In this document: positions 42,113-55,554 of the stretch, piece after piece
Numbering within the stretch: position 1 is the first letter of the stretch
How the letters are laid out: the number at the start of each line of letters is the position of its first letter
Assembly: GCA_017798145.1 (NCBI GenBank)
Contig: CP059069.1
Span: forward strand, 1,845,226 to 1,909,225
Reading direction: 5' to 3'
From: Akkermansiaceae bacterium
Lineage (GTDB): Bacteria > Verrucomicrobiota > Verrucomicrobiia > Verrucomicrobiales > Akkermansiaceae
Length of the DNA stretch: 64,000 nt
Notes under the pieces: model-generated
The model's database searches: none
What the model was told of the DNA's origin: nothing
The model's input: the letters and a program-made list of their open reading frames with translations, nothing else
Made by a program: the position numbers and the translations under genes

Positions 42113-43996
42113 ATGAATTTGCGCTGGTTGAACGCTTTGTTGTGGGGGAACACCGTCGCGCTTGCGTGGATGTGGGGGCTGGGGCTGTTTTTCAGCGTCC
42201 AGATCTCATTCATGTTCGGCATGCAGGGGCTGCTCATGTTCGCCATCCCCAACGCCATCGGCCTCATGCTTTTCGGCACGCTCACCCAGATCGTGGCAAA
42301 GCGCCATCCCGGCGGGCACGAATCGCTGGCGCTGTTTTTCGACAAGTTCGCCAAACCTTTCCGCCTCATTTTCTACATCTACCAGATCGTCGCGCTCTCG
42401 CTGACGGTCTTCGCGCTGGTGAAATATCTCGTCGTCCCACTGCTCGGGACGATCGACAGCCTCTCCGGGAGCGCTGTCCTCGCGCTTTCGGTGACGATGT
42501 CCGTCTTCGTCCTGCTGGCGGTGGGCTGCCTGTTCGGCGAGGAGTTCGGCATCCGCAAAATCAAGGCCGGGCACGCGCTGCTCGGCGCACTGCTGGTCAT
42601 CTGCATTGCGACGGTGCTGGTTTCGCTTGGCGGCTCTTCCCCGGGGACCGGCAGCCAAGGGCTTGGTGCAGATCACGGATATACATCGAGCCGGTTCTGG
42701 GGACTCGTCATACCGCTTATCGTCGGGCTGCTGGTCGGCCCGTGGATGGATTTGCAGCACTGGCAGCGCGCGATCCAGATCCACCGCGAGGAAACCTCAA
42801 TCCGCCTGAGCTACATTTTCGGCGGGATCATCTTTTTCCTGCTGCTGCTTTTCCACGGTTACCTGGCCATGTGGGTGATGGGCAACGCGACAGAAATCAC
42901 CCTCAACACCTCGAAACTCGATGATCTCGTCTATGGCCACAGCATCGTCGTGCAGTATTTTTCCGATGGATTTTCCGGAAACTCCCTGATCCCCGCGGCC
43001 TACTTCGGTTTCCTTGTCATCTGTGTCCTGACCACGCTCGACAGCGGTTATGTCGCTCTCAGGTGGTTCCTTGGGAAAAACGTCGAGAAGAGCGAGAACA
43101 TGCTCATTTCGATCATCCCCAAGCAGATCATCTCCTCTCCCATCCCGACCTTCTTCATCGTCGCCGTGATCACCTTGGGGGGCTATTTCGCGAAGTTCGA
43201 GCTGGAGTATTTCATGGTCTTCTACGCCTCGTTCTTCGTCGGCTACGCCGCGCTAGCCATCGCCCGCTGCTTCGTCCCGAACTCACAGCAGCCTCTCCCG
43301 CAGATCCGCATGTTCTCGATGGCATGCCTATGCCTGGTGATCTTCGCCTTCGGCTACATGGTCGACCAGAACGTGCTGATGTACGTCGGTTCCCTGCTTC
43401 CGCTGGCTTATGTGGTATGGCTCGTCACCACCACCGACCTGCTGCGCCTTGTCACGGAAAAGGCCGACCAGGTGATGCACGCCGCCGCAGAGATCCCCGC
43501 GATCAAGGCGATTGCCAAAACCACGCAGCCCGCGCCCAGCGAGGTGGCCGCCCCCGTTTCCGGAGGCACCCACGACCTCATGGGCCACTTCGAGGGGAAA
43601 TGGTTCGTCTATTCCATGGTCGCCACCTACGCGGACACGAACTCCGTTGGCAATGTCTATTTCGGGATGTATCCGATGTATGTCGGGAAAACCCGCGAGC
43701 TGTTCTTCAACGCCGCGATGCCGGACTTCGACCTGAAGACGACGAAGTTCTACATCCTCACCCGCTCCTTCGAGCACAAGTTCGTCCGCGAGACCCGCGA
43801 GTTCGATACGATCACGGTCAAGATCAAGGTGAAGGATGCGAACCGGAAATTCTGCACCCTGGAGCACCAGATATTCGGATCCGAAGGCCAACTGTTAGGA
43901 AAAGGCCAGCAGAGCCTGCTGTTCGTTTCCGCGAAGGACTACGGCCTGCTCGACATCCCGCCGGAAGTCTATTCCGCCTTCGTGAAATATCTCTGA
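42113..43996 (+). CDS. Membrane transporter fused to a C-terminal hotdog thioesterase
   Basis: 627 residues from ATG 42113 (behind GCTGGGGGC). Residues ~1-440 hold about a dozen hydrophobic helices with Trp/Phe-rich starts (GLGLFFSVQISFMFGMQGLL) and WMDLQHWQRAIQIHREE; I read this as a solute-transporter-like domain but cannot name the family. Residues ~493-627 form a hotdog domain: FEGKWFVYSMVATYADTNSV, GNVYFGMYPMYVGKTRELFF, and GEGQLLGKGQQSLLF-like ending. The ADTNSVGNVYF stretch closely recalls the enediyne/polyene thioesterases (CalE7/DynE7 type). The domain order in a single chain is one I have not seen. It lies next to and convergent with the cluster of lipid-like enzymes on the minus strand. 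Confidence 0.7.
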   Translation: MNLRWLNALLWGNTVALAWMWGLGLFFSVQISFMFGMQGLLMFAIPNAIGLMLFGTLTQIVAKRHPGGHESLALFFDKFAKPFRLIFYIYQIVALSLTVFALVKYLVVPLLGTIDSLSGSAVLALSVTMSVFVLLAVGCLFGEEFGIRKIKAGHALLGALLVICIATVLVSLGGSSPGTGSQGLGADHGYTSSRFWGLVIPLIVGLLVGPWMDLQHWQRAIQIHREETSIRLSYIFGGIIFFLLLLFHGYLAMWVMGNATEITLNTSKLDDLVYGHSIVVQYFSDGFSGNSLIPAAYFGFLVICVLTTLDSGYVALRWFLGKNVEKSENMLISIIPKQIISSPIPTFFIVAVITLGGYFAKFELEYFMVFYASFFVGYAALAIARCFVPNSQQPLPQIRMFSMACLCLVIFAFGYMVDQNVLMYVGSLLPLAYVVWLVTTTDLLRLVTEKADQVMHAAAEIPAIKAIAKTTQPAPSEVAAPVSGGTHDLMGHFEGKWFVYSMVATYADTNSVGNVYFGMYPMYVGKTRELFFNAAMPDFDLKTTKFYILTRSFEHKFVRETREFDTITVKIKVKDANRKFCTLEHQIFGSEGQLLGKGQQSLLFVSAKDYGLLDIPPEVYSAFVKYL

Positions 43997-44007
43997 GCCC
44001 GCGTGCC

Positions 44008-45072
44008 TCAGATCCTGCCTGGATCGAATCCGAACGGCTCCCGCCACTCCGGGGGCTCCCCCTCCCAGCCGACGAGGAAGTGACGGCCGCGGAAAACCTT
44101 GCCCTTCAGGCCGGAGAGTGCGGCTGCGAGGGGATCTTTCTCGGACAAGCCAACCGACAGCAGCCCCCCATTTCCTGAAAACAGGGCGGCTGAGAGAAGG
44201 CTCTTCAGGATGGACGGATCGTCGTCCGCACAGGCGAGCATGGACGCTTTCCGGATCGGAATCGTCCTGCCCCGTCGTGGCAGCTTCGCACCGCCGCGGA
44301 TTAGCGCAGCGAGATTCCAAAACGGTCGGGCTACCGCCATCGCAGGGGAATAGCCATCGACCCGCAAACGCTGGAAACCGCCTTGATCCCACAGAGCAAT
44401 CATCCCGCGAATCTCTCCCGCATCCTCAGCGACAAGGAAATCCCCGATCACCAAGCCGTTGAGGAAAGCCCCACCAAGTTTCCCTAGGTCGACCGCCGCA
44501 CTGAAACTCCTGCGGCGGGAGGAATCATCGAGAAGGCATTGCATTGCAGGAAGATCGGCCTCACACGCTGTGCGGACGGGGAAGTAACGCGAAATCGCCT
44601 GTTGGGGCAGCAACCAGTTCACATACCGGCCTGCGGGTCGGTATTGCGGGAGCCGCATGCGTCCGCTGCGCAGGATTTCGAGAGCCGGCGCGTTTCCCTC
44701 CAGCACAAGCGTCTGCGCCCATTCGCCTTCGGCAAAAACCTTTTCCCTGAGACTCCGAAAACCACGCGCGAGCAGGGTGCCGCTCCTCCAATCCGGATGA
44801 ATCCTCAGATCGGAAAGGTAACGCAGGGGGATTTTTTCTCCGCCGAGATGGACAAGGCGTTTGCCCGCTGAAAACACACCCGCCGCCCGCCCGTCCGCTG
44901 CGAAGGCTGCCCAGACACAGGGCGTGGCCGCCTGCACCCGCGAGGCCGCGAAGAAATCCGGTGAACGATCCGAACCGATCCGGATTGCTCCGGCCATGGA
45001 GGTTTCCGAAAAAAGCCGTTCTAGCGCGGCATGATCGGCGGCAACCGCCTCGCGGATCGTCACCCCATCCAT
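44008..45072 (-). CDS. Tandem GNAT-like acyltransferase
   Basis: 354 residues from ATG 45072, which has a strong GGGGAGG ribosome site 6-12 bases upstream and overlaps the stop of the GH3 gene. TIREAVAADHAALERLFSET opens a GNAT-like domain with LRYLSDLRIHPDWRSGTLLA, which resembles the acetyl-CoA-binding strand and loop. A second, more diverged half (about residue 185 on) contains LVAEDAGEIRGMIALWDQGG. Possible role: N-acylation in the proposed pathway. Substrate unknown. Confidence 0.6.
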   Translation of the reverse strand: MDGVTIREAVAADHAALERLFSETSMAGAIRIGSDRSPDFFAASRVQAATPCVWAAFAADGRAAGVFSAGKRLVHLGGEKIPLRYLSDLRIHPDWRSGTLLARGFRSLREKVFAEGEWAQTLVLEGNAPALEILRSGRMRLPQYRPAGRYVNWLLPQQAISRYFPVRTACEADLPAMQCLLDDSSRRRSFSAAVDLGKLGGAFLNGLVIGDFLVAEDAGEIRGMIALWDQGGFQRLRVDGYSPAMAVARPFWNLAALIRGGAKLPRRGRTIPIRKASMLACADDDPSILKSLLSAALFSGNGGLLSVGLSEKDPLAAALSGLKGKVFRGRHFLVGWEGEPPEWREPFGFDPGRI

Positions 45073-46469
45073 TCCGCCACCTCCCCGGATGATTGCTGTT
45101 GGTATAGTACGGGCAGCTTCACATCGCCGATCCTGCAGCCGCGCTTGAGTGCGAGGGCTGCGGATAAATCCTGCACCCATCCCTCCTTCAAAGCCATGGG
45201 CTTGCATGGCGCGAGTTGCCCGAGGGCGAGAGCCTGTTTGAAATACGGATTCTCCAGCAGCTTTGAAATCACTCGGGCGGATTTTCTAGTGTCCTCCATC
45301 CAAACCTCGTAGCCCGGCACATCGGGATCCGCCGCAAGGAACCCGCAGACGCCCGCCTCCGAAAAAGCCGCCGCAACCGCTTCCTCCGCGAGCTTCTCCC
45401 CGACCAGATCCGAGACAATCCCTTTCCTGCCGAGAAACCTCATCTCCGGAACCCCACCCTCAGTGAAGCCCGTGATCCTCACAAGATCCCCGCTGCGGTA
45501 GCGCATCAGTCCGCCCGAAGTGGAAATCAACACCTCACAGACCATGCCGATCCGCAATTTCTCACAGGCGAGATGGTTGCCGTCCTCATCGAGGAATTCA
45601 TGGTAGTGGCACTCATGCGCCAGTCTCGCGGAACCGACTGGAATCGAAGTCACCCCTTCCGTTGCAAGCAGGCCTTTCGGCTCGATGGGCACACCGCCGA
45701 GCCTATCGCGGAGTCGAGGAATCCACCTGGCGCTGGAGGCATCCGCCCAACAGCTCACGAGCGCGAGCTGCGGCCAGATTTCCCGCCATGTCTTGCCGGG
45801 CCGCCGCAACGCGACTTCCGCATCGATGCAGAGTAAAAATGTCGGGCTCCAGACAGAGACCAAACTCAGATCCGGAGTCCTCAGCAGTTCCTCCGCCGTT
45901 TCCGCGAAGACTTCCGAAGCACCTCCCGAAAGCCGCGGCACAACCAGCCAGTCGGACAGCCGCGCCCCTATCGCGTCTGGGAAATATGCGCCATCGCCAT
46001 CCAGCCCGACCGGCAAACCGCCCGCTGTCCTCCCCCGCGCGATCCCCGGCGGTGAGATCGCCCAATACGCCCTTCCTCCGAACACCTCAGGATAACTTTC
46101 GTGCCAGCCGCCCAGCCATGCCGCCATCCCGTAGGCGAAATCCTCCCGCAGCCCCTCGGTCACAGGGATCAGTTTCGCACCGGAACTGGTGCCGGAGGTG
46201 CACTCGAAGGCGATGACCTCCCCGCAAGGCAGCACGCCTTTCTCCCCATTCGCAACGCGCGCGATCCAATTACCATAGTCCTCGTAGTTCCTCTCCGGGA
46301 CACGCTCCCGAAAATCCGCCTCAGTCCGGATCTCCCCGAACCCATGAGCCTTTCCGAACACCGTGTCCTGATGCCGATGGATCGAGGCGAGCAACCGATC
46401 CCAGGGACTCCCCGCCCTTTCCGGCATGGACTCCAGAGCCCCCAGCAATGCCCGCGCCGCCGCATTCAT
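45060..46469 (-). CDS. GH3-family ATP-dependent acyl-acid-amido synthetase-like enzyme
   Basis: 469 residues. The adenylation P-loop is TSGTSSGAKLIPVT (91-104), and a later YRSGDLVRITGF with TEGVTSIPVGSA marks the GH3 branch of the adenylating superfamily. GH3 enzymes in plants join acyl acids to amino acids through an acyl-AMP; bacterial relatives do the same with various acyl groups. ATG 46469 overlaps the upstream stop as ATGA. Overlap and spacing place it centrally in the minus-strand operon. Confidence 0.8.
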   Translation of the reverse strand: MNAAARALLGALESMPERAGSPWDRLLASIHRHQDTVFGKAHGFGEIRTEADFRERVPERNYEDYGNWIARVANGEKGVLPCGEVIAFECTSGTSSGAKLIPVTEGLREDFAYGMAAWLGGWHESYPEVFGGRAYWAISPPGIARGRTAGGLPVGLDGDGAYFPDAIGARLSDWLVVPRLSGGASEVFAETAEELLRTPDLSLVSVWSPTFLLCIDAEVALRRPGKTWREIWPQLALVSCWADASSARWIPRLRDRLGGVPIEPKGLLATEGVTSIPVGSARLAHECHYHEFLDEDGNHLACEKLRIGMVCEVLISTSGGLMRYRSGDLVRITGFTEGGVPEMRFLGRKGIVSDLVGEKLAEEAVAAAFSEAGVCGFLAADPDVPGYEVWMEDTRKSARVISKLLENPYFKQALALGQLAPCKPMALKEGWVQDLSAALALKRGCRIGDVKLPVLYQQQSSGEVAEWMG

Positions 46470-47182
46470 CGCACGCCTTCCAGCCCTTCGCGGAACGCCG
46501 TGAGCGCGAACTTGCGGAGATTCCCCGCGGACATTTCCGCCATGCACACAAGCTCCTCGCCATCGGCATGACCCGGGTTTCTCTCCAGGAAAAAATCCAC
46601 CCACATATTCCGCTCCGGCACTCCGGCCAACTCCCTCCTGAGTTGACCCGCGCTCCGGGGAAATCGGATCACGCCCTCATCCGCCTTCCACGCATCGCCG
46701 AACAGTCCGCCCGCAACCTTGCCCGCAAGGTCTTCCAGAATCTGCTCCTCCCGCTCCGGATGCGGATGGAAACGCTTCGCAAACAAAGGCAGGTAACGGT
46801 AGGTGCGGTGGCCTTTCGAGATCAGGAACCAATACAGCGGCCTCCCGCTCCGCGCCTTCCGCTCCCCTGCCCGGCGGCAGAAACCTTTCACCAGTTCCTG
46901 CGTCCCCCAGTGCTCGCGGGCGATCACGGTATCTCCGGAAAAGATCACATCGCCCTCCGGCATTTCACCGCAGGGGTTCCATGCGATCGTCGTAAATCCG
47001 CACAACCGCCCCTCACCATCACGGAGCATGACCACTTCGTCCTTCCTTTCCAAATCCGCCCGGAAAGCATCCGCCGCAACCGCCTCATAATGCCGCTCCA
47101 TCAGGGCGAACATTTCCGCAATCTCCGCCTCGGGAAGATCGGAAACGCGCACCACCTCGCTCGCGAGGCCGGTCTTTGTCAT
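46466..47182 (-). CDS. GNAT-fold-like protein of the biosynthetic operon
   Basis: 238 residues from ATG 47182, coupled to the upstream gene by an ATGA overlap. The first half resembles a GNAT acyltransferase (EIAEMFALMERHYEAVAADA, VVMLRDGEGRLCGFTTIAWN), the rest is unrecognised (SGRPLYWFLISKGHRTYRYL). An alternative start is ATG 47191. Likely works with the GH3 enzyme directly downstream; the acyl or amine partner is unknown. Confidence 0.55.
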   Translation of the reverse strand: MTKTGLASEVVRVSDLPEAEIAEMFALMERHYEAVAADAFRADLERKDEVVMLRDGEGRLCGFTTIAWNPCGEMPEGDVIFSGDTVIAREHWGTQELVKGFCRRAGERKARSGRPLYWFLISKGHRTYRYLPLFAKRFHPHPEREEQILEDLAGKVAGGLFGDAWKADEGVIRFPRSAGQLRRELAGVPERNMWVDFFLERNPGHADGEELVCMAEMSAGNLRKFALTAFREGLEGVR

Positions 47183-47751
47183 TTCAGGCATGCCGCGATG
47201 AGGATGGAGATCATCAGGTATTGGGAAGGCATACGGATGAAATCGGTCAGCAGGTTCAGCCTCGCATGTTCCGGCCCGTCCGGCACGAAATAGATCCCCT
47301 CGGCAGGGCCTGCGGTTTGTTTTTTGAAACGGAAGACGAAATAGATCTCGGCCACAAGGGTGAGAGCCGTCAGCCACAGCCAGATCCGCGTGTCACCGCC
47401 CCGCAGCAGAAGGACAACCAATCCGAGGTGAATTACATCATGGAAAATCCCATACGAGGTTTTCCATTTCCCCCTCGCACAAAGCGGGAGCTCGATCACC
47501 GTCCGCAACCCCATGGAAACCGCCAGATAGAGGTAAGTGGGACTCTGCAAGCAAAGCAAAACCGGCAGCACCAGCCAGAGCGCGGAAACATGCACCAGCC
47601 ACCCCGCCTTCGCCCGCGAGATGGGGCCACCCAGCCGCTGCGGCAGCCGGTTCTGCCACGCATGAAAGATCGGCGCGAGAAAATGGAACCCTAGCAGCAC
47701 CCAAGCCGCCCAAACCGGCATCGCCTCCACCGCATCTTGCCACGCCTTCAT
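47179..47751 (-). CDS. Polytopic membrane protein of unknown function
   Basis: 190 residues with about five hydrophobic helices (VWAAWVLLGFHFLAPIFHAW; AGWLVHVSALWLVLPVLLC; IWLWLTALTLVAEIYFVF; LMISILIAACLK) and a HDVIHLGLVVLLL segment with two His that could bind metal. No family recognised. ATGA overlaps on both sides (with the Rieske gene upstream and the GNAT-like gene downstream) show strict co-translation. Confidence 0.65.
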   Translation of the reverse strand: MKAWQDAVEAMPVWAAWVLLGFHFLAPIFHAWQNRLPQRLGGPISRAKAGWLVHVSALWLVLPVLLCLQSPTYLYLAVSMGLRTVIELPLCARGKWKTSYGIFHDVIHLGLVVLLLRGGDTRIWLWLTALTLVAEIYFVFRFKKQTAGPAEGIYFVPDGPEHARLNLLTDFIRMPSQYLMISILIAACLK

Positions 47752-48752
47752 ACCCGCAGCCCCTTTCTCTCCGGCGCGCGGCCTTCCAGAGATTTCCCGG
47801 CGATCAGATCCCGTATCCCGCGCGCGATTGCATCGGTCTCATGGAAAAGGAATTTCGCTTCCCCCGTCCGCTCGATGTCCTCCGTCTGCTCGCGGAGGAT
47901 ATCGACATCCTGATCCAGGATGCGCCCGGCGAAGGGTTTGAAAACGAGATTCACCAGCGCGCCCAGCGGCTCGAAGCGGAACGCCAGCATCGTGAACACC
48001 CGCGTCCTGTTTTCCGAAACCGGGGTACATTGGCTCATGACGACATACTGGCGCTTTTCACTCATCCGGTAATTCACGCGCGTGACGAAAGGCAGTTGGA
48101 AACGGTCGGTGTGACGGATCTCGCTGCCCTCCGGGACAAGCAGTTTCCCTATCCATGAGTCCATTCGCTCCTCGCCGATGAATTCCGCCTCGATCCAATC
48201 CGCCCCACCCGTGATCTCCAGCTCGATCTCCTTGCTCTCCTCACCCCGGAAAAGCCCGCGGTGCACATGCGCCGTGTGGGGGACATCCAGAAAGTTTTCC
48301 ACGCAATGGAACGCCGCCGCCTCGAACTCACGCTCCATCAGGAAATGCCGCCAGCCCTGCTCCCCCATCCCCGGAAACACCGGCGGGCCAAGCTCGGAGT
48401 CAGCGCCATCCTCCGCCGGCATCCACACCCAGACGTAGCCCTGTTGCTCCCAAGCGATGTATGATTTCACCCGTATCGCGGAACAATCCCCAGACCCGCA
48501 GGCCGCAGGAATTTTCGTGCAGCGCCCGTCCGCCGCCCAAGCCCAGCCGTGGTAGGCGCAGCGCAAGCCGTCGTCGGTCACCTTGCCACGTGAGAGCGCG
48601 AGATTCCGGTGCGGGCAGCGATCCGCCAGCACCCCGATCCGCCCCTCCGCATCCCTGAAAACCACCAAGGCTTCCCCAAGCACCGTCCTTGCCACAGGCC
48701 CCTTGACAACCTGCTCCGCACGACAAGCGATATACCAATGACCCCGCAGCAC
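47748..48752 (-). CDS. Rieske non-heme iron oxygenase
   Basis: 334 residues. The [2Fe-2S] site is CPHR (Cys46, His48) and CAYHGW (Cys65, His68) with normal spacing. The mononuclear iron site lies in ENFLDVPHTAHVH, with an Asp in DILREQTED as a possible third ligand. The layout resembles the VanA/pheophorbide-oxygenase group that hydroxylates or demethylates aromatics; PrnD-type amine oxidation is another possibility. First gene of the minus-strand operon, 83 bases from the divergent desaturase start. Confidence 0.85.
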   Translation of the reverse strand: MLRGHWYIACRAEQVVKGPVARTVLGEALVVFRDAEGRIGVLADRCPHRNLALSRGKVTDDGLRCAYHGWAWAADGRCTKIPAACGSGDCSAIRVKSYIAWEQQGYVWVWMPAEDGADSELGPPVFPGMGEQGWRHFLMEREFEAAAFHCVENFLDVPHTAHVHRGLFRGEESKEIELEITGGADWIEAEFIGEERMDSWIGKLLVPEGSEIRHTDRFQLPFVTRVNYRMSEKRQYVVMSQCTPVSENRTRVFTMLAFRFEPLGALVNLVFKPFAGRILDQDVDILREQTEDIERTGEAKFLFHETDAIARGIRDLIAGKSLEGRAPERKGLRV

Positions 48753-48835
48753 ACCTGCACGTTAGATCGCCGCAACCCCACATGGCGAACGGATTCGTTG
48801 TTTCCAAATCCCCCGTCCTCCTTACGATGTTGCAT

Positions 48836-49687
48836 ATGAAAGCAGCACGGTTCCTGCCACTGCTCCGCGACCGCGCGGATCTGAGGACGCTGCTGTTCGT
48901 CGCGCTCGCGCTTCTCCTCGCTGCGGGGAATTGGACGGGGCTGTTCCGCAACTTCCTGAGCGTGCCGCTGGCGTGCCTGTTCGCCTTCGTCTCCTGCACC
49001 GCGACTCACAACCAGATGCACCTGCCGGTTTTCCGCAGCCGGTTCTGGAATTCCATCTACCAGATCGCGCTTTCCTTCGCCATCGGCCAGCCGCCCACCG
49101 GCATCATCACCGCACACAATGAGAGGCATCACAAGCACACGGAAAGCGATCTCGACTTCGTACGGACAAACCTCGTCCGCTTCCGCTGGAACGCGCTGAA
49201 CATCCTCCTGTTCCCCTTCGCCTCCATCGCAGCGATGTATCGGGAAAAACCAGGCGACCTCGCCGATTGGAAAGCGAAGCGCCCCCGCCTTTTCCGGCAG
49301 GCGGTGCTTGAGCGGGCGATCTTCTATGTAGTGATCGTGACCCTCCTCATTGCGGACTGGCGAGCCACCATCCTTTTCCTGTTCCTACCGTGGATCAGCG
49401 CACAGATCGCGCTGGTGGGCATGAATCTCCTCCAGCATCAGGATTGCGACAGCAGCTCGGAACACGACCACTCCCGGAACCTCACCGGAAAAGTGGTGAA
49501 CTATTTCCTCCTCAACAGCGGCTACCACACCGCACACCACATCCGTCCGGCGATGCACTGGAGCAGGCTCCCGGAGTTCCATGAAAGCGAGATCGCTCCC
49601 AAAATGAACCCCGCCCTCAACCACCGCTCCCTCACCGGCCTTCTCGCCGAACGGTTCCGCAGGCCTCCCATTTCCCATGCAAGCTGA
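48836..49687 (+). CDS. Membrane fatty-acid desaturase
   Basis: 283 residues from ATG 48836; ATG 48827 is equally possible. Three His boxes are present: THNQMH, HNERHHKHTE, and HTAHH near the C-terminus, with LLQHQDCD between. About four membrane helices. Desaturates or hydroxylates acyl chains in the membrane with O2 and electrons from a redox partner. First gene of the plus-strand half of the cluster; it overlaps the following gene by 11 bases. Confidence 0.8.
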   Translation: MKAARFLPLLRDRADLRTLLFVALALLLAAGNWTGLFRNFLSVPLACLFAFVSCTATHNQMHLPVFRSRFWNSIYQIALSFAIGQPPTGIITAHNERHHKHTESDLDFVRTNLVRFRWNALNILLFPFASIAAMYREKPGDLADWKAKRPRLFRQAVLERAIFYVVIVTLLIADWRATILFLFLPWISAQIALVGMNLLQHQDCDSSSEHDHSRNLTGKVVNYFLLNSGYHTAHHIRPAMHWSRLPEFHESEIAPKMNPALNHRSLTGLLAERFRRPPISHAS

Positions 49688-51581
49688 ACTACCGGACCGC
49701 GAATCTTCAGCTCGCCCCAGTGCCCCCGCCCGGGAGATCGACTTCACCCTGCCGTTTTTCCCCGCCCGTCTCACCGCGCTGCACCATATCCCCTCGTGGC
49801 ATCTCCTTGAAGAGCGGCACCGCACCCGCTACACACAGCTCTACGCACTTTATCTGAACGAGCAGACGGCATTCTTCGAGGAGTTGCTGGCAACAACGCT
49901 CCTTCCCGCGCTCTACGCCCGACCGGATCTCATCGGCGCGGATCTCGCGGAAAACCTCCGATGCTTCGAGCAGGAGGAGAGACGACACTCGCGCTGGTTC
50001 CGGCAAATGAACCACCGCATCGATCCCAAACGGTTTTCCATGGAGCCGGGCGACTACGTTTTCATCCCCTCCAATCCACGCCTCAACGGCATCGGCAAAT
50101 GGTTCGCCGGAAAGCCGTTTTCGTTTCCCTTCTGGATCTGGCTCATCCTTCTCCAGGAGGAGCGCTCGATTTACATAGCCCGGGAGTGCCTCAACGAAAG
50201 CGGCCTCGAACCGAATTTCCGCGAGCTCCACCGCAAACACATGGCCGATGAGGTCGACCATGTCCGCTGGGACACCCAACTCATCGAACGGCTCTGGCTG
50301 CCCATGCCCATGTGGAAACGAGAGTTTCAGGCCGCAATCTTCGGTTGGCTCATGCGCGAGTTCTTCACCGTCCCGAAACGGGCGGCAAGGTCTGTGCTCG
50401 ACGCCCTGCTAGGCGAGTTTCCAGAGCTTTCAACCATTGCCGGGCAACTCCGCCGCGAGCTTGCGGAACTCAAGTCCTCCCTCCCCTATCACGCCAGCCT
50501 CTACAGCCGCAACGTCACCCCGAAAGCCTTCGCCCTATTCGATTCGCTGCCGGAGTTTGAAAACATAGGCCGCTCACTACCCGCCTATGGAGAAGGGCGC
50601 CTCCGGCCCCTTAGCACAACCCCAGCGATCCACTCTCACTATCCTCCGCAAAAGGGCGAGACGCCCCCTTCTCCATACCCGCTCCCATCACGGCTGAACC
50701 TCCTCATCGCCGCCGCCCAGGTCATCGGCCTCCTCGCTCTCCTTGCGGCCACCTCCATCACCTCCGGCTGGGCGCTGGCCGGCCTCGCCATCGCGTATGC
50801 CCTCCTGATGAATTCCGGCTACGCCATGCTCCATGAAGCCGAGCACGGCCTGCTTCACGAAAACCGCCGCCTCAACGATACGGTTGGAGCCATCCTCGCC
50901 CTGTTTTTCCCCGCGCCTTTCCACCTCCTCCGCCAGGGCCACATCGGCCACCACCTGCGCAACCGCTCCGACGAAGAGGCATTCGATTTTTACTTCGAGG
51001 GCGAGAGCCGCATTTGGAAAACCCTCCAGCTTTACGGCATCCTCACCGGATTCTTCTACCTCACCGTCGTCCTCTCGAACCTCCTCGCCCTCATCCATCC
51101 GAACCTCCTGAAAGCCCGCTGGGCCGACTTCGACCGCCCGACCCGCGCCCTCCTCGACTCGCTCAATCCGCGCTACTTCCGCCTCATCCGCATCGAGGCC
51201 ATCGCCGTTTTCCTGCTCCACGGCACATGGATCTGGCTCTGGGGGACGCCGGTCTGGAAACACTTTTTACTCGTCGGCAGCTTCGGCGTCCTCTGGTCCG
51301 CCCTCCAATACGTCCACCACTTCGGCACCGAGCGCGACGTCCTCAAGGGCGCCCGCAACCTCCGCACATGGAAGTGGCTCGATGCCCTCTGGCTGAACCA
51401 CAACTGGCACCGCAACCACCATTCCCAACCTACCGTCCCGTGGGTGAATCTCCCGGAAATCACCCCGGAAAACGACGGCGAGCGTGGCCGCGTCCTCGCC
51501 GCCTACCTCCGCATGTGGCGCGGCCCCAGGCTTACGGATGAACGAATCGAAAACCATCATGCCGGAAAAATCATTCGCTGA
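49677..51581 (+). CDS. AurF-like diiron oxygenase fused to a membrane fatty-acid desaturase
   Basis: 634 residues. Residues ~30-300 carry the diiron-oxygenase pattern of AurF-type N-oxygenases: Glu69 (NEQTAFFEELL), EQEERRHSRW with Glu101 and His104, LQEERSIYIARE with Glu161-162, and HMADEVDHVRW with Asp191, Glu192 and His195. Residues ~340-630 are a polytopic desaturase with His boxes HEAEH (386-390), HIGHH (422-426) and HNWHRNHH near residue 578. The linker (304-334) is encoded by an inverted-repeat element. I know of no AurF-desaturase fusion. A frameshift between the two domains is not needed. It probably N- or C-oxidises and desaturates the same carrier-bound or lipid substrate. Confidence 0.75.
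   Translation: MQAELPDRESSARPSAPAREIDFTLPFFPARLTALHHIPSWHLLEERHRTRYTQLYALYLNEQTAFFEELLATTLLPALYARPDLIGADLAENLRCFEQEERRHSRWFRQMNHRIDPKRFSMEPGDYVFIPSNPRLNGIGKWFAGKPFSFPFWIWLILLQEERSIYIARECLNESGLEPNFRELHRKHMADEVDHVRWDTQLIERLWLPMPMWKREFQAAIFGWLMREFFTVPKRAARSVLDALLGEFPELSTIAGQLRRELAELKSSLPYHASLYSRNVTPKAFALFDSLPEFENIGRSLPAYGEGRLRPLSTTPAIHSHYPPQKGETPPSPYPLPSRLNLLIAAAQVIGLLALLAATSITSGWALAGLAIAYALLMNSGYAMLHEAEHGLLHENRRLNDTVGAILALFFPAPFHLLRQGHIGHHLRNRSDEEAFDFYFEGESRIWKTLQLYGILTGFFYLTVVLSNLLALIHPNLLKARWADFDRPTRALLDSLNPRYFRLIRIEAIAVFLLHGTWIWLWGTPVWKHFLLVGSFGVLWSALQYVHHFGTERDVLKGARNLRTWKWLDALWLNHNWHRNHHSQPTVPWVNLPEITPENDGERGRVLAAYLRMWRGPRLTDERIENHHAGKIIR
50586..50677. repeat. REPIN-like inverted repeat inside the fusion gene linker
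   Basis: TATGGAGAAGGGCG (50586-50599) pairs with CGCCCCCTTCTCCATA (50662-50677, two extra C). The left arm also contains an AAGGG/CCCTT hairpin and the right arm AAGGGCG-AGA-CGCCCCCTT. It encodes residues 304-334 in frame, which is low-complexity and proline-rich. Confidence 0.75.
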
Positions 51582-52209
51582 GCACAAAGGCACGCAAGTC
51601 GCCATGCTCCTGCTCAATCTCATTCCGCTTTGCCATGCAGCAGGCACCGTCGCGTGCCTTTTCCTCCCGCTCATGTGGCCGCTGAAAATTCTCTCCGCCC
51701 TAGCTTTCCTTTACATCCTCCCCCTCGTCCCCGCCCGCATCCTCCGCGAATCGCTCCGGAGATCCCCTCCGGAAATCCCCATCGGCTCCCCCGCTTTCCT
51801 AAAATGGTGGGCCTGCTTCCAGTGCCAGGTGCTCTTCCTCCGCTTTCCCTCGCTGGAAGAGATCATCCGCCTCATCCCCGGTTGCTATTCCCTCTGGCTG
51901 CGGCTTTGGGGATCCCGCATCGGCAGGTTCACCTACTGGGCTCCCCGTACTTCCATCCTCGACCGCGGCTTCCTGGAAATCGGAGACAACGTGGTCTTCG
52001 GTGCCGGCGTGAAGCTCAACCCGCATGTCATGGAGAAGGGGAAACTCCTCCTCGCCCCCGTGAAAATCGGCGACCGCTCGCTCATCGGCGGATACTCACT
52101 GCTCACCGCCGGAACCGAGATCGCGGATGACGAAGCCGTCCGTGCGTTTTTGATTTCCCCGCCCTTCTCAAAATGGAAGGATAACAGACGAATCCGCGAA
52201 AAATCATGA
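51559..52209 (+). CDS. Membrane-anchored left-handed beta-helix acyltransferase-like protein
   Basis: 216 residues from ATG 51559; ATG 51538 is also possible, and both overlap the end of the fusion gene. Two N-terminal hydrophobic helices (LLLNLIPLCHAAGTVACLF, ILSALAFLYILPLVPARIL) precede a short left-handed helix part (GFLEIGDNVVFGAGVKLNPH, PVKIGDRSLIGGYSLLTAGT). Hexapeptide repeats of this kind occur in O- or N-acyltransferases. The acceptor is unknown. Confidence 0.65.
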   Translation: MPEKSFAEHKGTQVAMLLLNLIPLCHAAGTVACLFLPLMWPLKILSALAFLYILPLVPARILRESLRRSPPEIPIGSPAFLKWWACFQCQVLFLRFPSLEEIIRLIPGCYSLWLRLWGSRIGRFTYWAPRTSILDRGFLEIGDNVVFGAGVKLNPHVMEKGKLLLAPVKIGDRSLIGGYSLLTAGTEIADDEAVRAFLISPPFSKWKDNRRIREKS

Positions 52210-52772
52210 AACCCATCATCCTGTTCCTGCTGCTCACCGCCCTTCCCGCATTTTCGCAGGAAGCCGACAAACAAGCCCTCCGCGACCTCAAGGCGATCTA
52301 CGAGCGAGCCATCGCCGAAAAGGATCTCGAACTCATCAAGCCGCACCTGGCCGCCGATTTCACCGCCGTGATGATCACCGCAGATGAAGTTAAGGACTAC
52401 GACGGTATCAAGGCATATTGGGCGAAGGTGGAGGAGTTCATCGGCGAGGACGGAACCTACACCGTCTCCGTCGAGCCGGATGACACGATCTTCGACGGCA
52501 ACATCGCCATAGCGAAAGGCATCGCAAAGGAACAGGTCGTGCGCGGAGGGAAGAATATTGACCTGACATCGAAATGGACCGCCATCGCCCGCAAGGAAGG
52601 CGAAACATGGAAACTCGTCCGCATCCAGGCCAGCATCGACCCGGTCAACAACCCCATCATCACCGCTCTGAACAAAGGCAAACTCTGGGTGACCGGTGGG
52701 GTGGCCGGAGTCGTAGGGCTCGTCATTGGACTTCTGTTAGGGCGTAGGAGTAGGCGCGTCTCCGCGCCTTGA
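52206..52772 (+). CDS. Secreted NTF2-like (DUF4440-type) protein with C-terminal membrane anchor
   Basis: 188 residues, start codon overlapping the previous stop as ATGA. A signal peptide (PIILFLLLTALPAFSQ), an NTF2-like fold (LRDLKAIYERAIAEKDLELI, WTAIARKEGETWKLVRIQAS) and a C-terminal helix (VAGVVGLVIGLLLGRRSRR) are visible. The last residues come from the REPIN-like repeat at 52741. It may bind a small hydrophobic ligand; function unproven. Confidence 0.65.
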   Translation: MKPIILFLLLTALPAFSQEADKQALRDLKAIYERAIAEKDLELIKPHLAADFTAVMITADEVKDYDGIKAYWAKVEEFIGEDGTYTVSVEPDDTIFDGNIAIAKGIAKEQVVRGGKNIDLTSKWTAIARKEGETWKLVRIQASIDPVNNPIITALNKGKLWVTGGVAGVVGLVIGLLLGRRSRRVSAP

Positions 52773-52867
52773 GTTCGGGGTGGCGTCTCCGCCACCTGTG
52801 GAAAAGTCTTTTGTCACTGCGGGTGGGACACCCGCTTGAACCCAAGGCGCGGGACGCACCTACTCCC
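52741..52867. repeat. REPIN-like composite of four hairpins
   Basis: Outer arms GGAGTAGGCGCG..CGCGCCTTGAGTTC (52747-52776) and GAACCCAAGGCGCG..CACCTACTCC (52838-52866) are imperfect inverted copies. Between them lie two tight hairpins: GGTGGCG-TCTC-CGCCACC (52779-52796) and GCGGGTG-GGA-CACCCGC (52819-52835). The left arm itself folds (AGGCGCG-TCTC-CGCGCCT). It spans the end of the NTF2-like gene and the stop of the next, convergent gene. Confidence 0.75.
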
Positions 52868-55554
52868 TAGCGAACCATTGCGGATGCAATCCGCTGCCAC
52901 TCTCCTATCTGATGATAGCCTCCGGTGGAGAACGGCCCGTATTCGCCGCTAGTCCCGTCCGTCCATTTCACATTCACCCGCACGGGTGACTTGTCGTCGC
53001 CCAGCCCCACCACGATGCGCCTGTCGCCCTGGGCGGAGAATCCCGAGACATTGAGTACATCGACGTGCCATTTTTTCCCTCCCTGGGAAATCTCCAGCAC
53101 GCTGCCAACCGCATCGCTGGGCACCGCTTTCCCGTTTCCCCGCACCTCGAGACCGATCCACGCAGCGGATGAACTACGGCGGTTCTCGTAGAATGAGACC
53201 GGATCGAACTGCCGGGTGAGGACGAGATCCGCATCCCCGTCGTTGTCGAAGTCAGCGAGCGCCACCCCGCGCGAGTTCCCGAGCCGGGAAAGCCCCGTGA
53301 CATCCGATGCATCGTGGAAAGTCCCGCCCCGATTCATCAGCACCCGGCTTTTCTGCGAACCCCAGATCGTGTAGCCCCGAGTGTCACCCCATTTGTCTGC
53401 GTAGGAATGGACACCGGGATCGCTGCGCGCCACTTGGCCGTTCACATACCAGTAGTCGCGCGGCTTATCGAAGCGGCGATCCATACTGTCGTCCACCATC
53501 CCGTTCGCCTGCACCATGTCCGGCCAGCCATCGAGATCGAGGTCGGCGACGCCCGCGCCCCACCCAAAACTTTCGGGATTCAGTGCTCCACGTTTCGCTG
53601 CCTCGTTGTGGAATAGCACGCTGCCATCCGCCATCCGCTCCGTCATCCACAACAAGCTTCCCTCCGCCTGCATCGGCGCGTGCACATTGGAGACCTGGAT
53701 GTCCGGCGTGCCGTTGCGGTCGAAATCCGCGATGCTCGCATTCATCCCCTTGTAGGTGTCTTTTCCGATGGATCCGAAATGCGACCCTTCGATCCTGCGG
53801 AAACCTTTTCCCTTCTCGTTCAGGTAAAGGTCATCGGGGCCGAAGTCGGACGCCGCGTAGATGTCCGGCCAGCCATCGCCATCAAAATCCGCGGAGTTCA
53901 GTGCCAGCGTCCAATGCGTCTCCGGCATCCCGAGCTTTTTGATATCCTCCTTCGCAAAAGTCCCGTCGCCCCGGTTGCGGTAGAATTGGTTCAGCCCGCC
54001 GTTCTCCGCCTTGTGCCAGCTCGCGTGCATGAAATGGAACATACGGCGGTCGCCCTCATATTCCGGCCGGGGCAGGCGGAAGGGATTGAGCGGGGTCGGC
54101 TTTTCATAATCCGGCAGGTAGGGCGTCATCGAGTTTCCCAGCAGCAGGTCGAGATCGCCGTCGCGGTCGGGATCGAAAAACATCGCCGCAAGGCAGGTGT
54201 GGTGGCCGGTGATCCCTGACCGCTCCGTGATGTCGGTGAAGGCGATTTCCCCGGCGACAGAATCGTTCCTGAAAAGCCTGCTGCCGCCGAAACCCATGCC
54301 GATGAAAAGATCCTGGTCGCCGTCGTTGTCGATGTCCGCGAAGACCGCGCAGGATGGAAGACCATACTCGGCCGGATCGGCGCGGATCACATCGAGCGCG
54401 GGCAGTTGGATTTTTTCAAATGTCAGATCCCCCGTATTCCGGAAAAGCGTGCAGCGATCTTCCGCCCGTTTCATCGGCCTCGTCAGGAAAAGATCCTGAA
54501 GCCCGTCGCCGTCCACATCCGCCACCGCCGCCGCATCGCCCACCGAGAGAATCCATTTCCCGACATGCTGGAGACGCGGATCGATATCGGTGAGGATGGT
54601 TCCCTGCTTGGACGGGAAAAGATCCTTCTCCACCCACGTGAAGCCGGGACTTTCCGTCAGCCCGCGCGGAGTCCGATCCAGCGCGAATGCCACGCCCACC
54701 AGAACCGATGCCAGCACCGCTTTCCTAACAAGCACCCGCGATTCGGGAAATCCTCGAGCTTTGATCCAACCCCAAAGAAACCGCACCGTTTGCACCGTGA
54801 ACGCCGCGTAGAAGAGCGTGTAGTAGCCCTGCATGAAATGGAACCCGAGATCCGCCACGGTGATCGCCGCCGCGATTCCGATCTGCGCTCCCTTTTTCGC
54901 CGGGGAGGTCGCCGGATCGGTCAGCATATAGAACACGAAAAGGAAGAACGCGGGAGCTGTCAGCGTCCCCAGCCAGATCGCCTCCGCAGGCACATGGTGA
55001 CGCATCACCCAAGCCCGCAGCGCAGTCTGGGCGCAGTAGAAAACGAGGAACGAACCCACCAGCCAGCCGCGTTGGATCTTGCGGATGAACACCACCATCG
55101 CCAGCCCGCCAAGGAACATCGCGATCGCCCACGTCCCGCCCCATTGGTAGGCTGGAGCGGGCGAGATCAGCCCACCACCCAGCAGCATCCCCGCGATCAC
55201 ACCGAACAGCGCCGGATTATAGACATGCTTCCCGTTGAGCGTGAAAAGGTGCTTCGACCCGATCGCCAGAAGCGGCGGCAGCAGCGGCAGCCAGACATTC
55301 GATCCATAGTCCAGCAACAGCGCCAGCCCGCACCCGGTGATCAGCCCGCTCCACGGGAACTCCGTCCGTTTCCTGAAAAACCGGTTCGCCAGGAAATCCG
55401 CCAGCGCCGCCGTCACAACCACCATCCCAGCCTGCAACGGCGTACGCGCGAAACCGAGGAACGCCAGCCCGCAAATTAAGTAGAGCCCCAGCAAGCCAGC
55501 GAACCACGGCCTGGGATCCACATCCTTTGTAATCTCCGGTCTCAACAGCCCCAT
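52867..55554 (-). CDS. RnfD/NqrB-like membrane domain fused to FG-GAP/VCBS repeats and ASPIC domain
   Basis: 895 residues from ATG 55554. The first ~290 residues hold about eight helices and match the RnfD/NqrB-like pattern (FPWSGLITGCGLALLLDYGS, VYNPALFGVIAGMLLGGG, FYMLTDPATSPAKKG). No flavin-attachment SGAT is evident. The rest is extracytoplasmic: calcium-binding-like repeats (DVDGDGLQDLFL, DIDNDGDQDLFIG, DLDLDGWPDMVQ, DFDNDGDADLVL) and an ASPIC/UnbV-type C-terminal domain (GDRRIVVGLGDDKSPVRVNV). The role is unknown, perhaps membrane-tethered surface binding with an electron-transfer-like anchor. The stop is inside the REPIN-like repeat. Confidence 0.8.
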   Translation of the reverse strand: MGLLRPEITKDVDPRPWFAGLLGLYLICGLAFLGFARTPLQAGMVVVTAALADFLANRFFRKRTEFPWSGLITGCGLALLLDYGSNVWLPLLPPLLAIGSKHLFTLNGKHVYNPALFGVIAGMLLGGGLISPAPAYQWGGTWAIAMFLGGLAMVVFIRKIQRGWLVGSFLVFYCAQTALRAWVMRHHVPAEAIWLGTLTAPAFFLFVFYMLTDPATSPAKKGAQIGIAAAITVADLGFHFMQGYYTLFYAAFTVQTVRFLWGWIKARGFPESRVLVRKAVLASVLVGVAFALDRTPRGLTESPGFTWVEKDLFPSKQGTILTDIDPRLQHVGKWILSVGDAAAVADVDGDGLQDLFLTRPMKRAEDRCTLFRNTGDLTFEKIQLPALDVIRADPAEYGLPSCAVFADIDNDGDQDLFIGMGFGGSRLFRNDSVAGEIAFTDITERSGITGHHTCLAAMFFDPDRDGDLDLLLGNSMTPYLPDYEKPTPLNPFRLPRPEYEGDRRMFHFMHASWHKAENGGLNQFYRNRGDGTFAKEDIKKLGMPETHWTLALNSADFDGDGWPDIYAASDFGPDDLYLNEKGKGFRRIEGSHFGSIGKDTYKGMNASIADFDRNGTPDIQVSNVHAPMQAEGSLLWMTERMADGSVLFHNEAAKRGALNPESFGWGAGVADLDLDGWPDMVQANGMVDDSMDRRFDKPRDYWYVNGQVARSDPGVHSYADKWGDTRGYTIWGSQKSRVLMNRGGTFHDASDVTGLSRLGNSRGVALADFDNDGDADLVLTRQFDPVSFYENRRSSSAAWIGLEVRGNGKAVPSDAVGSVLEISQGGKKWHVDVLNVSGFSAQGDRRIVVGLGDDKSPVRVNVKWTDGTSGEYGPFSTGGYHQIGEWQRIASAMVR

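What the first reader, a model, noticed from the sequence alone, without database searches (positions are those of the whole stretch)
42113..52772. Candidate undescribed biosynthetic locus for an oxidised acyl product
Seven genes overlap by ATGA-type or short overlaps and include enzymes that make sense together: hotdog thioesterase, GH3 acyl-adenylating enzyme, GNAT-like proteins, Rieske oxygenase, two desaturases, AurF-like diiron oxygenase, beta-helix acyltransferase. No PKS, FAS or NRPS core is present, so the acyl chain must come from primary metabolism, or the core lies elsewhere. The enzyme set suggests release or activation of a desaturated acyl group, joining to an amine, and N- or C-oxidation. 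I cannot match it to a known cluster.
Basis: partly seen in the sequence, partly recalled or inferred. Interest (0 to 1): 0.82.

Follow-up and report, generated by a model that had tools for sequence, protein, structure and literature searches.

The report
Acyl-amide pathway with interchangeable oxidation modules
A recurring bacterial gene cluster appears to attach fatty acyl groups to an amine and remodel the chain, using oxygen-using enzymes (including a relative of a protein pair from enediyne-antibiotic clusters) in some bacteria and vitamin-B12 radical enzymes in others; its product is unknown.

Summary
The cluster is real and recurs, but its borders differ from those given. The transporter-hotdog gene (42113-43996) matched no relative tested. 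That protein joins an RnfD-like membrane domain to FG-GAP/UnbV repeats; the membrane domain groups with UnbU of enediyne clusters, away from Rnf/Nqr proteins.

The core is GNAT1-GNAT2-GH3. In 387 Verrucomicrobiota genomes GNAT1 and GNAT2 each hit 19, sharing 18; GH3 is in the same run in 18 of 18. Sixteen of these carry B12-radical-SAM genes (one weakly), two the UnbU-UnbV fusion, none both. The core also occurs in Planctomycetota, Gemmatimonadota and Pseudomonadota, once beside exporter genes.

GNAT1 has a predicted N-myristoyltransferase-like tandem-GNAT fold. The 34 sequences examined keep an acid five residues from a hydrophobic last residue.

I read it as an acyl-amide pathway with interchangeable oxygen-dependent and B12-radical-SAM remodelling modules. 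No chemistry was tested. Seven searches of open-licence papers gave no description.

The parts
44008..45072 (-). GNAT1: tandem-GNAT, N-myristoyltransferase-like acyltransferase (354 aa)
   Evidence: Model pLDDT 89.5; NMT matches Foldseek E 5.8e-13, VIA Z 23.1, 295 aligned, rmsd 3.4; acid at -5 and hydrophobic last residue in 30 of 30 aligned rows and 4 of 4 later ones read by eye
45060..46469 (-). GH3 acyl-adenylating amide synthetase (469 aa)
   Evidence: Pfam GH3 107.9 bits and GH3_M 42.3 bits; in the same run as GNAT1/GNAT2 in 18 of 18 confident Verrucomicrobiota genomes
46466..47182 (-). GNAT2: single-GNAT acyltransferase (238 aa)
   Evidence: Model pLDDT 92.2; GNAT folds up to Z 12.8, FeeM and LasI among them; no Pfam GNAT hit
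47179..47751 (-). MEM: small membrane protein of unknown family (190 aa)
   Evidence: No Pfam or NCBIfam hit; found with Rieske in 7 UNB-type loci; in one frame with FG-GAP repeats in L020
47748..48752 (-). Rieske non-haem iron oxygenase (334 aa)
   Evidence: Pfam Rieske + VanA_C; Rieske and mononuclear-iron motifs in 6 of 6
48782..49687 (+). DES1: membrane desaturase/hydroxylase-like di-iron protein (301 aa)
   Evidence: Pfam FA_desaturase 91.7 bits; three His boxes in 9 of 9
49677..51581 (+). AurF-like di-iron domain fused to DES2, a second membrane desaturase (634 aa)
   Evidence: Pfam AurF 48.1 and FA_desaturase 98.9 bits; mostly separate frames in the relatives; DES2 His boxes in 13 of 13
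51559..52209 (+). LBH: left-handed beta-helix protein with hydrophobic segments, similar to the Pls/PosA terminal domain
   Evidence: Hexapep; NCBIfam NRPS_term_dom 46.1 bits, cut-off 423.1; hydropathy
52206..52772 (+). SnoaL/DUF4440-like protein with one C-terminal hydrophobic segment
   Evidence: Pfam DUF4440 31.6 bits; hydropathy
52867..55554 (-). UNB: RnfD-like membrane domain + FG-GAP repeats + UnbV_ASPIC (895 aa), an UnbU-UnbV-like fusion
   Evidence: Pfam NQR2_RnfD_RnfE, FG-GAP_3, UnbV_ASPIC; matches UnbV/UnbU pairs; tree

Best explanation
A biosynthetic cluster for an N-acyl amide (lipid-like or secreted) built from fatty acids of primary metabolism. GH3 adenylates a carboxylic acid with ATP and joins it to an amine or amino acid. 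GNAT1, with an N-myristoyltransferase-like tandem-GNAT fold, moves an acyl group from a thioester to an amine, its C-terminal carboxylate acting as base. GNAT2 makes a further acyl transfer. The acyl chain is desaturated or oxidised by DES1, DES2 and the AurF-like domain. The UnbU-UnbV fusion, with Rieske and MEM, performs a chain-remodelling step that B12-binding radical SAM enzymes perform in the other version. Shown: gene content, co-occurrence, the swap pattern in the sampled loci, domain identities, grouping of the UnbU domain, and metal-ligand motifs of Rieske and the desaturases. Inferred: every reaction, every substrate, the equivalence of the two modules, and the product.
For: Nine loci from named genomes share LBH, SnoaL and DES2 in 9 of 9 and GH3 and GNAT1 in 8 of 9, L015 being cut. 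GNAT1/GNAT2 profiles hit 19 and 19 of 387 genomes, 18 shared; GH3 in the same run in 18 of 18; B12-radical SAM in 16 (G209 only at E 8e-5), UnbU-UnbV in 2, both in none. Later same-genus loci: B12-radical SAM in 4 of 4, GNAT2 and GH3 in 3 of 4. Rieske and MEM were in none of the 16 in the stretches held. NMT-like fold, its C-terminus aligned to the NMT C-terminus, which is the catalytic base (PMC7048800, passages). GH3 and GNAT1 in one frame in L021. GH3 makes N-acyl ornithine in Singulisphaera (PMC12493201, abstract and passages). B12-radical-SAM proteins of L018 score best with BchE, PhpK and HpnJ models, all below cut-off.
Against: No product and no assay. The module equivalence rests on mutual exclusion in limited flanks; B12-type loci carry further radical SAM genes, and G443 and G202 keep AurF and DES2 with B12-radical SAM, so the swap concerns only UnbU-UnbV/Rieske/MEM. 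L016 and L021 have UnbU-UnbV without Rieske or MEM in the stretch held (L021 is cut on that side, L016 is not). Burkholderia arboris and Acinetobacter baumannii have the core with neither module. L146 has GNAT1 and B12-radical SAM without GNAT2/GH3 in a 7-kb contig, and G480 GNAT2 alone. DES2 (13 of 13) and Rieske (6 of 6) also end flush, so a flush end is not special to GNAT1. The GH3 motif YRxGD is in only 7 of 12 distinct proteins.
Confidence: 0.5

Rival explanations
1. A membrane aminolipid pathway of the GH3-dependent ornithine-lipid kind: GH3 makes an N-acyl amino acid, a second acyl is added, and the chains are then desaturated or hydroxylated.
For: OlsH is a GH3 enzyme that makes N-acyl ornithine in a planctomycete; the GH3 here has a weak partial OlsH match; PAP2-like genes in several loci; membrane desaturases.
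Against: OlsH score 45.3 against a cut-off of 620; no alpha/beta-hydrolase (OlsI-like) domain among the window proteins scanned; in an A. baumannii record the core sits among MFS, HlyD and OEP efflux genes, which suggests a secreted product.
Confidence: 0.3
2. A pathway for an acylated, radical-SAM or oxygenase modified peptide or protein: the NMT-like enzyme acylates a peptide amine.
For: NMT acylates protein amines; radical SAM proteins with weak matches to peptide-maturase models, among many others, in B12-type loci; a study of lysine-acylated lanthipeptides contains the term tandem GNAT (PMC13060382, listing and start of abstract).
Against: Little room for a precursor gene between the packed genes: the gaps are 29 bp (48753-48781) and 94 bp (52773-52866). 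GH3 has no obvious role in such a scheme. Small ORFs were not searched systematically.
Confidence: 0.08
3. An enediyne-like or polyyne-like product: UnbU-UnbV and the desaturases create acetylenic groups on a fatty chain.
For: UnbU domain groups with enediyne UnbU, 96/96; the fusion aligns to UnbV and UnbU of the C-1027 cluster, E 1.5e-25 and 6.6e-17; two desaturase-family proteins.
Against: No enediyne PKS or DUF1702 match at E 1e-3 in the window, 11 cluster loci and 4 other loci; B12-type loci lack UnbU-UnbV; desaturase-family membership does not show acetylenase activity.
Confidence: 0.1
4. The UnbU-UnbV gene is a general electron-transfer or scaffold protein that happens to lie beside the cluster.
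For: FG-GAP/UnbV_ASPIC proteins are common and the C-terminal half is about as similar to CRTAC1 proteins of Granulicella and Acidisarcina; single UnbU-like genes exist in other contexts.
Against: UnbU-UnbV parts are in all 9 GNAT1-bearing loci outside Pseudomonadota without B12-radical SAM, apart from L014, a 6.5-kb contig (L020 has only the FG-GAP half, in frame with MEM); UnbU-like hits in only 6 of 387 genomes, none of them one of the 16 B12-type genomes; it is the only PF03116 protein of its genome.
Confidence: 0.12

Closest known systems
GH3-dependent ornithine lipid synthesis (OlsH/OlsI, Singulisphaera acidiphila; PMC12493201)
   Same: GH3-family enzyme in a bacterial gene set from the PVC group; N-acyl amide formation is the proven GH3 reaction there
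   Different: OlsH model far below cut-off here; no OlsI-like gene found; extra GNATs, oxygenases, UnbU-UnbV or B12-radical SAM
Eukaryotic N-myristoyltransferase
   Same: Tandem-GNAT fold over the whole of GNAT1 (Z 23.1); model C-terminus aligned with NMT C-terminus
   Different: 11-16% identity in the rows shown; no Pfam match; in a bacterial small-molecule cluster; substrate unknown. Bacterial NMT-type structures have been noted before (PMC12219266, passages)
Enediyne cassette (UnbL/DUF1702, UnbV, UnbU, PKSE, thioesterase), e.g. C-1027
   Same: UnbU-like and UnbV-like parts, near oxidising enzymes
   Different: Fused in one protein in the order U-V (C-1027 has V then U as separate genes); no PKSE, no DUF1702
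BchE/AcsF-type pairs (oxygen-independent radical SAM versus oxygen-dependent iron enzyme for one step; recalled)
   Same: A B12-radical-SAM set and an oxygen-dependent set replace each other around a constant core
   Different: Here a whole module swaps, and the shared step is unproven
N-acyl amino acid synthase FeeM and AHL synthases (GNAT folds)
   Same: GNAT2 model matches FeeM (Z 11.7) and LasI (Z 12.6)
   Different: Tied with histone and N-terminal acetyltransferases (Z 11-13); no functional assignment follows

Membership tests
GH3-dependent ornithine lipid pathway (OlsH/OlsI) | OlsH equivalog GH3 | tested here: not met
   NCBIfam OlsH 45.3 bits, cut-off 620, partial
GH3-dependent ornithine lipid pathway (OlsH/OlsI) | OlsI alpha/beta-hydrolase O-acyltransferase nearby | tested here: not met
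   No such domain in the ten proteins at 42113-52772 and UNB; the rest of the genome was not searched for it
GH3 acyl-acid-amido synthetases | GH3 domains over curated cut-off | tested here: met
   GH3 107.9 (23.6) and GH3_M 42.3 (23.6)
GH3 acyl-acid-amido synthetases | Nucleotide motifs (recalled) | tested here: inconclusive
   [ST]SG[TSA] in 12 of 12 distinct proteins; YRxGD in 7 of 12 (G443 was counted twice there as L028 and L053); the window protein has both
N-myristoyltransferase | Tandem-GNAT NMT fold | tested here: met
   Z 21.7-23.1 in the 50 rows shown, all NMTs; predicted model only
N-myristoyltransferase | C-terminus reaches the active site as base | tested here: inconclusive
   Model C-terminus aligned to NMT C-termini; conserved end in 34 of 34; coordinates not inspected
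N-myristoyltransferase | NMT sequence family | tested here: not met
   No Pfam family listed at E up to 10
N-myristoyltransferase | Acyl-CoA:amine transfer activity | not testable with these tools
   Needs assay
Enediyne biosynthesis cassette | Enediyne PKS (PKSE) | tested here: not met
   C-1027 PKSE query: no match in the window or 15 loci, 11 of them cluster loci; three ketosynthase-family hits in own genome in frames of 409-440 aa
Enediyne biosynthesis cassette | DUF1702 (UnbL) | tested here: not met
   No match in the window or 15 loci at E 1e-3
Enediyne biosynthesis cassette | UnbU and UnbV | tested here: met
   long-branch warning on the tree; the UnbV half is not specific
Rnf/Nqr complexes | RnfD/NqrB clade | tested here: not met
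   Separate clade 100/100; PF03116 45.4 bits against 118.6-398.6 for all other hits listed in the phylum search but one (G222, 18.8); only PF03116 protein of the genome

The most novel reading that the evidence does not exclude
A so far undescribed class of pathways around an NMT-like acyltransferase, a GNAT and a GH3 enzyme, spread over at least four bacterial phyla, in which one chain-remodelling step exists in an oxygen-dependent form (UnbU-UnbV + Rieske + MEM) and a B12-radical-SAM form. If so, UnbU-UnbV is a portable module for difficult acyl-chain chemistry and not confined to enediynes.
Probability: 0.35. Interest if true: 0.88.

Novelty: new variant of a known kind. Interest (0 to 1): 0.76.

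Why it matters
The function of UnbU and UnbV in enediyne biosynthesis is, to my recollection, unsettled; a cluster that uses them without a polyketide synthase would be a simpler place to test them, and the B12-radical-SAM versions suggest what kind of step they do. It would also give a bacterial NMT-like enzyme a metabolic context.

Tried and rejected
Considered and dropped: (1) the transporter-hotdog gene as part of the set: no match in relatives. (2) The 4HBT domain as an enediyne-type thioesterase: only 25% identity, E 1.6e-6, to the C-1027 thioesterase and not conserved. (3) UNB as an Rnf/Nqr subunit. (4) A first UnbU tree contained badly picked control ORFs (L054, L055, L075 on very long branches); it was rebuilt with controls chosen by phmmer, nine of 24 candidate loci plus RsxD. 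The rebuilt tree still carries a long-branch warning. (5) A flush C-terminus as proof of NMT chemistry: controls DES2 and Rieske are flush too. (6) The UnbV half as specific to enediynes: generic CRTAC1 proteins match about as well. (7) Absence of the SGAT string from UNB and enediyne UnbU as loss of a flavin site: it is present in RsxD but absent also from the five control rows that grouped with RsxD, so it says nothing. (8) Motif counts counted the window protein twice; one search recounts on distinct frames.

Led nowhere: PDB sequence searches with the UNB membrane domain (none) and the GNAT2 profile (one weak hit); the GNAT1 profile gave four weak hits, three of them acetyltransferases. 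Paper searches for UnbV/UnbU/enediyne/RnfD/DUF1702 and for the gene combination gave no matching description (open-licence PMC only, listings read; two searches returned hundreds to thousands of papers of which only 15 and 12 were listed). antiSMASH and MIBiG were not available. The genome-contig scan finds close relatives only, so distribution outside Verrucomicrobiota is a lower bound.
Full report
What is there. The window lies at G000:C1:1845226-1909225 of a 4.39-Mb single-contig genome. Genes at 44008-52772 form two divergent, overlapping runs. Minus strand, from 48752 down: Rieske oxygenase, a 190-aa membrane protein (MEM), GNAT2, GH3, GNAT1. Plus strand, from 48782: desaturase DES1, an AurF-like domain fused to desaturase DES2, a beta-helix protein (LBH), and a SnoaL/DUF4440-like protein. 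Just beyond, 52867-55554 on the minus strand encodes an RnfD-like membrane domain followed by FG-GAP repeats and UnbV_ASPIC; I call it UNB.

Borders. One scan of named genome contigs with the AurF-DES protein found nine loci: by record title five are Verrucomicrobiota, three Planctomycetota (L018 is titled Sedimentisphaerales) and one Gemmatimonadota (titled Longimicrobiaceae). All nine carry DES2, LBH and SnoaL; GH3 and GNAT1 are in eight and GNAT2 in six (L014 starts inside GH3, L015 at DES2 and L021 just before GH3, so genes upstream are cut off there). UNB parts are in six of nine (L013, L016, L017, L019, L020, L021; L020 only the FG-GAP half) and B12-radical SAM in one (L018). The transporter-hotdog gene matched none of these loci, though not all reach that flank, and none of five other carrier genomes searched whole. 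It should be removed from the cluster and UNB added.

The core is GNAT1-GNAT2-GH3. Profiles A1 (GNAT1) and A2 (GNAT2) were searched in 387 Verrucomicrobiota genomes. GNAT1: 19 of 387, 18 with E of 1.6e-55 or better and one weak (G410, 1.2e-9). GNAT2: 19 of 387, the same 18 plus G480. The overlap has hypergeometric P 9e-29 if genomes were independent, which they are not; three of the 18 (G000, G117, G202) gave rows to both profiles. I looked at the flanks of all 18 (scans): GH3 is in the same run as GNAT1 and GNAT2 in 18 of 18, mostly adjacent. The flank of G480 had GNAT2 alone; that of G410 was not fetched. By contrast DES2 (E 1e-60) is in 4 of 387: G000, G117, G443, G202.

Two interchangeable modules. 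In the stretches held for the 18, B12-binding radical SAM genes are in 16 (in G209 only a weak hit, 8e-5, with another radical SAM gene), UNB in 2 (G000, G117), both in none; Rieske and MEM are in none of the 16. UNB-like domains were found in 6 of 387 whole genomes: G000, G117 and four distant single-domain genes in genomes outside the 16. Adding other loci, UNB-type: L013, L016, L017, L019, L020, L021 and G032; B12-type: L018 and a Citrobacter portucalensis plasmid. L014 and L015 are cut and cannot be typed. A later set from the window's own genus (GNAT1 in 5 of 61 genomes, one being the window's) gave B12-radical SAM in 4 of 4 new loci and GNAT2 with GH3 in 3 of 4; the fourth contig is 7 kb and lacks them. 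So within one genus both module types occur. There are exceptions: Burkholderia arboris (GNAT2, GNAT1, DES2, GH3, Rieske) and one Acinetobacter baumannii record (HlyD, MFS, GNAT2, GH3, outer-membrane efflux protein, GNAT1) show neither module in about 25 kb. L016 has UNB without Rieske or MEM. G443 and G202 combine B12-radical SAM with AurF and DES2, so the AurF/desaturase part is a separate, movable module.

UNB and enediynes. A protein search of plasmid records with UNB matched 62 records, 46 of them Streptomyces; in most Streptomyces rows that I saw, UnbV and UnbU genes lie under the match, among them C-1027. C-1027 UnbV and UnbU align to UNB over most of their length (E 1.5e-25 and 6.6e-17). 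A tree of the membrane domain with six enediyne UnbU, one Serratia UnbU, ten Rnf/Nqr proteins, three single UnbU-like proteins and seven cluster domains puts the cluster domains beside the enediyne ones (96/96) and the Rnf/Nqr proteins apart (100/100), with a long-branch warning. No enediyne PKS or DUF1702 was found in the window, 11 cluster loci and 4 other loci, and the genome has three ketosynthase-family hits, in frames of 409-440 aa. In L020, MEM and part of the FG-GAP protein share one frame, which ties MEM to the same step.

GNAT1 and GNAT2. Neither has a Pfam acetyltransferase match. The GNAT1 model (pLDDT 89.5) matches N-myristoyltransferases over its whole length: Foldseek E 5.8e-13, VIA-align Z 23.1, rmsd 3.4, 295 residues, 13% identity. 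In 49 of the 50 rows shown the last aligned pair is the last model residue with NMT residue 496 (human), 492, 455, 421 or 410 (other species); the remaining row is a C-terminally truncated NMT. Residue 496 is the human C-terminus, whose carboxylate is the catalytic base (PMC7048800, passages); that the other numbers are C-termini is recalled. PMC12219266 (passages) defines NMT-type double GNATs by a C-terminus in the active site and reports such structures in bacteria and archaea, so the fold in bacteria is not new. Thirty aligned GNAT1 sequences end in the same column with E (24) or D (6) at position -5 and L, I, V or M last; four later ones agree by eye. GNAT2 ends scatter over 14 positions in 28 rows, but DES2 (13 of 13) and Rieske (6 of 6) also end flush, so this is supporting evidence only. 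The GNAT2 model (pLDDT 92.2) is an ordinary GNAT, with histone acetyltransferases, LasI and FeeM tied at Z 11-13.

How it may work. GH3 enzymes of bacteria can make N-acyl amino acids (OlsH, PMC12493201, abstract and passages), but the GH3 here is not OlsH by NCBI's model. In L021 GH3 and GNAT1 are one reading frame, which fits two linked acylation steps. DES1 (9 of 9), DES2 (13 of 13) and Rieske (6 of 6) keep their metal-ligand motifs; all 13 AurF-like frames have an EExxH-type motif by a loose pattern; GH3 has its SGT-type motif in 12 of 12 but YRxGD in 7 of 12. The B12-radical-SAM proteins of L018 score best with BchE, PhpK and HpnJ models, below cut-off. I therefore propose an acyl amide whose chain is remodelled either by the UnbU-UnbV/Rieske/MEM module or by B12-radical SAM enzymes. 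The exporter genes in A. baumannii suggest a secreted product there; PAP2-like genes elsewhere suggest lipid chemistry. I cannot decide between a membrane lipid and a secreted small molecule.

Verdict. Novelty is put at 'new variant of a known kind' because GH3-dependent amide formation is known, while the combination was not found in paper searches, which cover open-licence PMC only.

Noticed in passing
L036 (Serratia proteamaculans plasmid NZ_MT039191.1), 4051-18436: DUF1702, UnbV and UnbU genes lie with an acyl carrier protein, separate ketosynthase genes, an aminotransferase and deoxysugar genes, with no gene annotated as type I PKS in the stretch shown. A possible non-PKSE use of the enediyne trio.
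   Followed up: partly
window:42113-43996: A transporter-like membrane protein with a fused C-terminal 4HBT domain; no Pfam hit for the membrane part and no match in five other carrier genomes.
   Followed up: partly
window:51490-51581 (C-terminus of DES2) and 12 relatives: DES2 ends flush in 13 of 13 sequences with a tail that is mostly AGKxIR; the reason is unknown.
   Followed up: no
L050:11526-13855 and L051:3627-5889: Single UnbU-like membrane genes stand directly before DUF2330 genes in two genomes, with no UnbV-like match in the stretches held.
   Followed up: no
L053:16138-19014: A SMEK-NACHT protein, possibly defence-related, sits between the two halves of the cluster in G443.
   Followed up: no
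L028:9553-11258: Two adjacent AurF-like genes in G443.
   Followed up: no
L135:5425-13077: In an A. baumannii record (3.97 Mb, labelled plasmid) GNAT2, GH3 and GNAT1 are interleaved with MFS, HlyD and outer-membrane efflux genes.
   Followed up: partly
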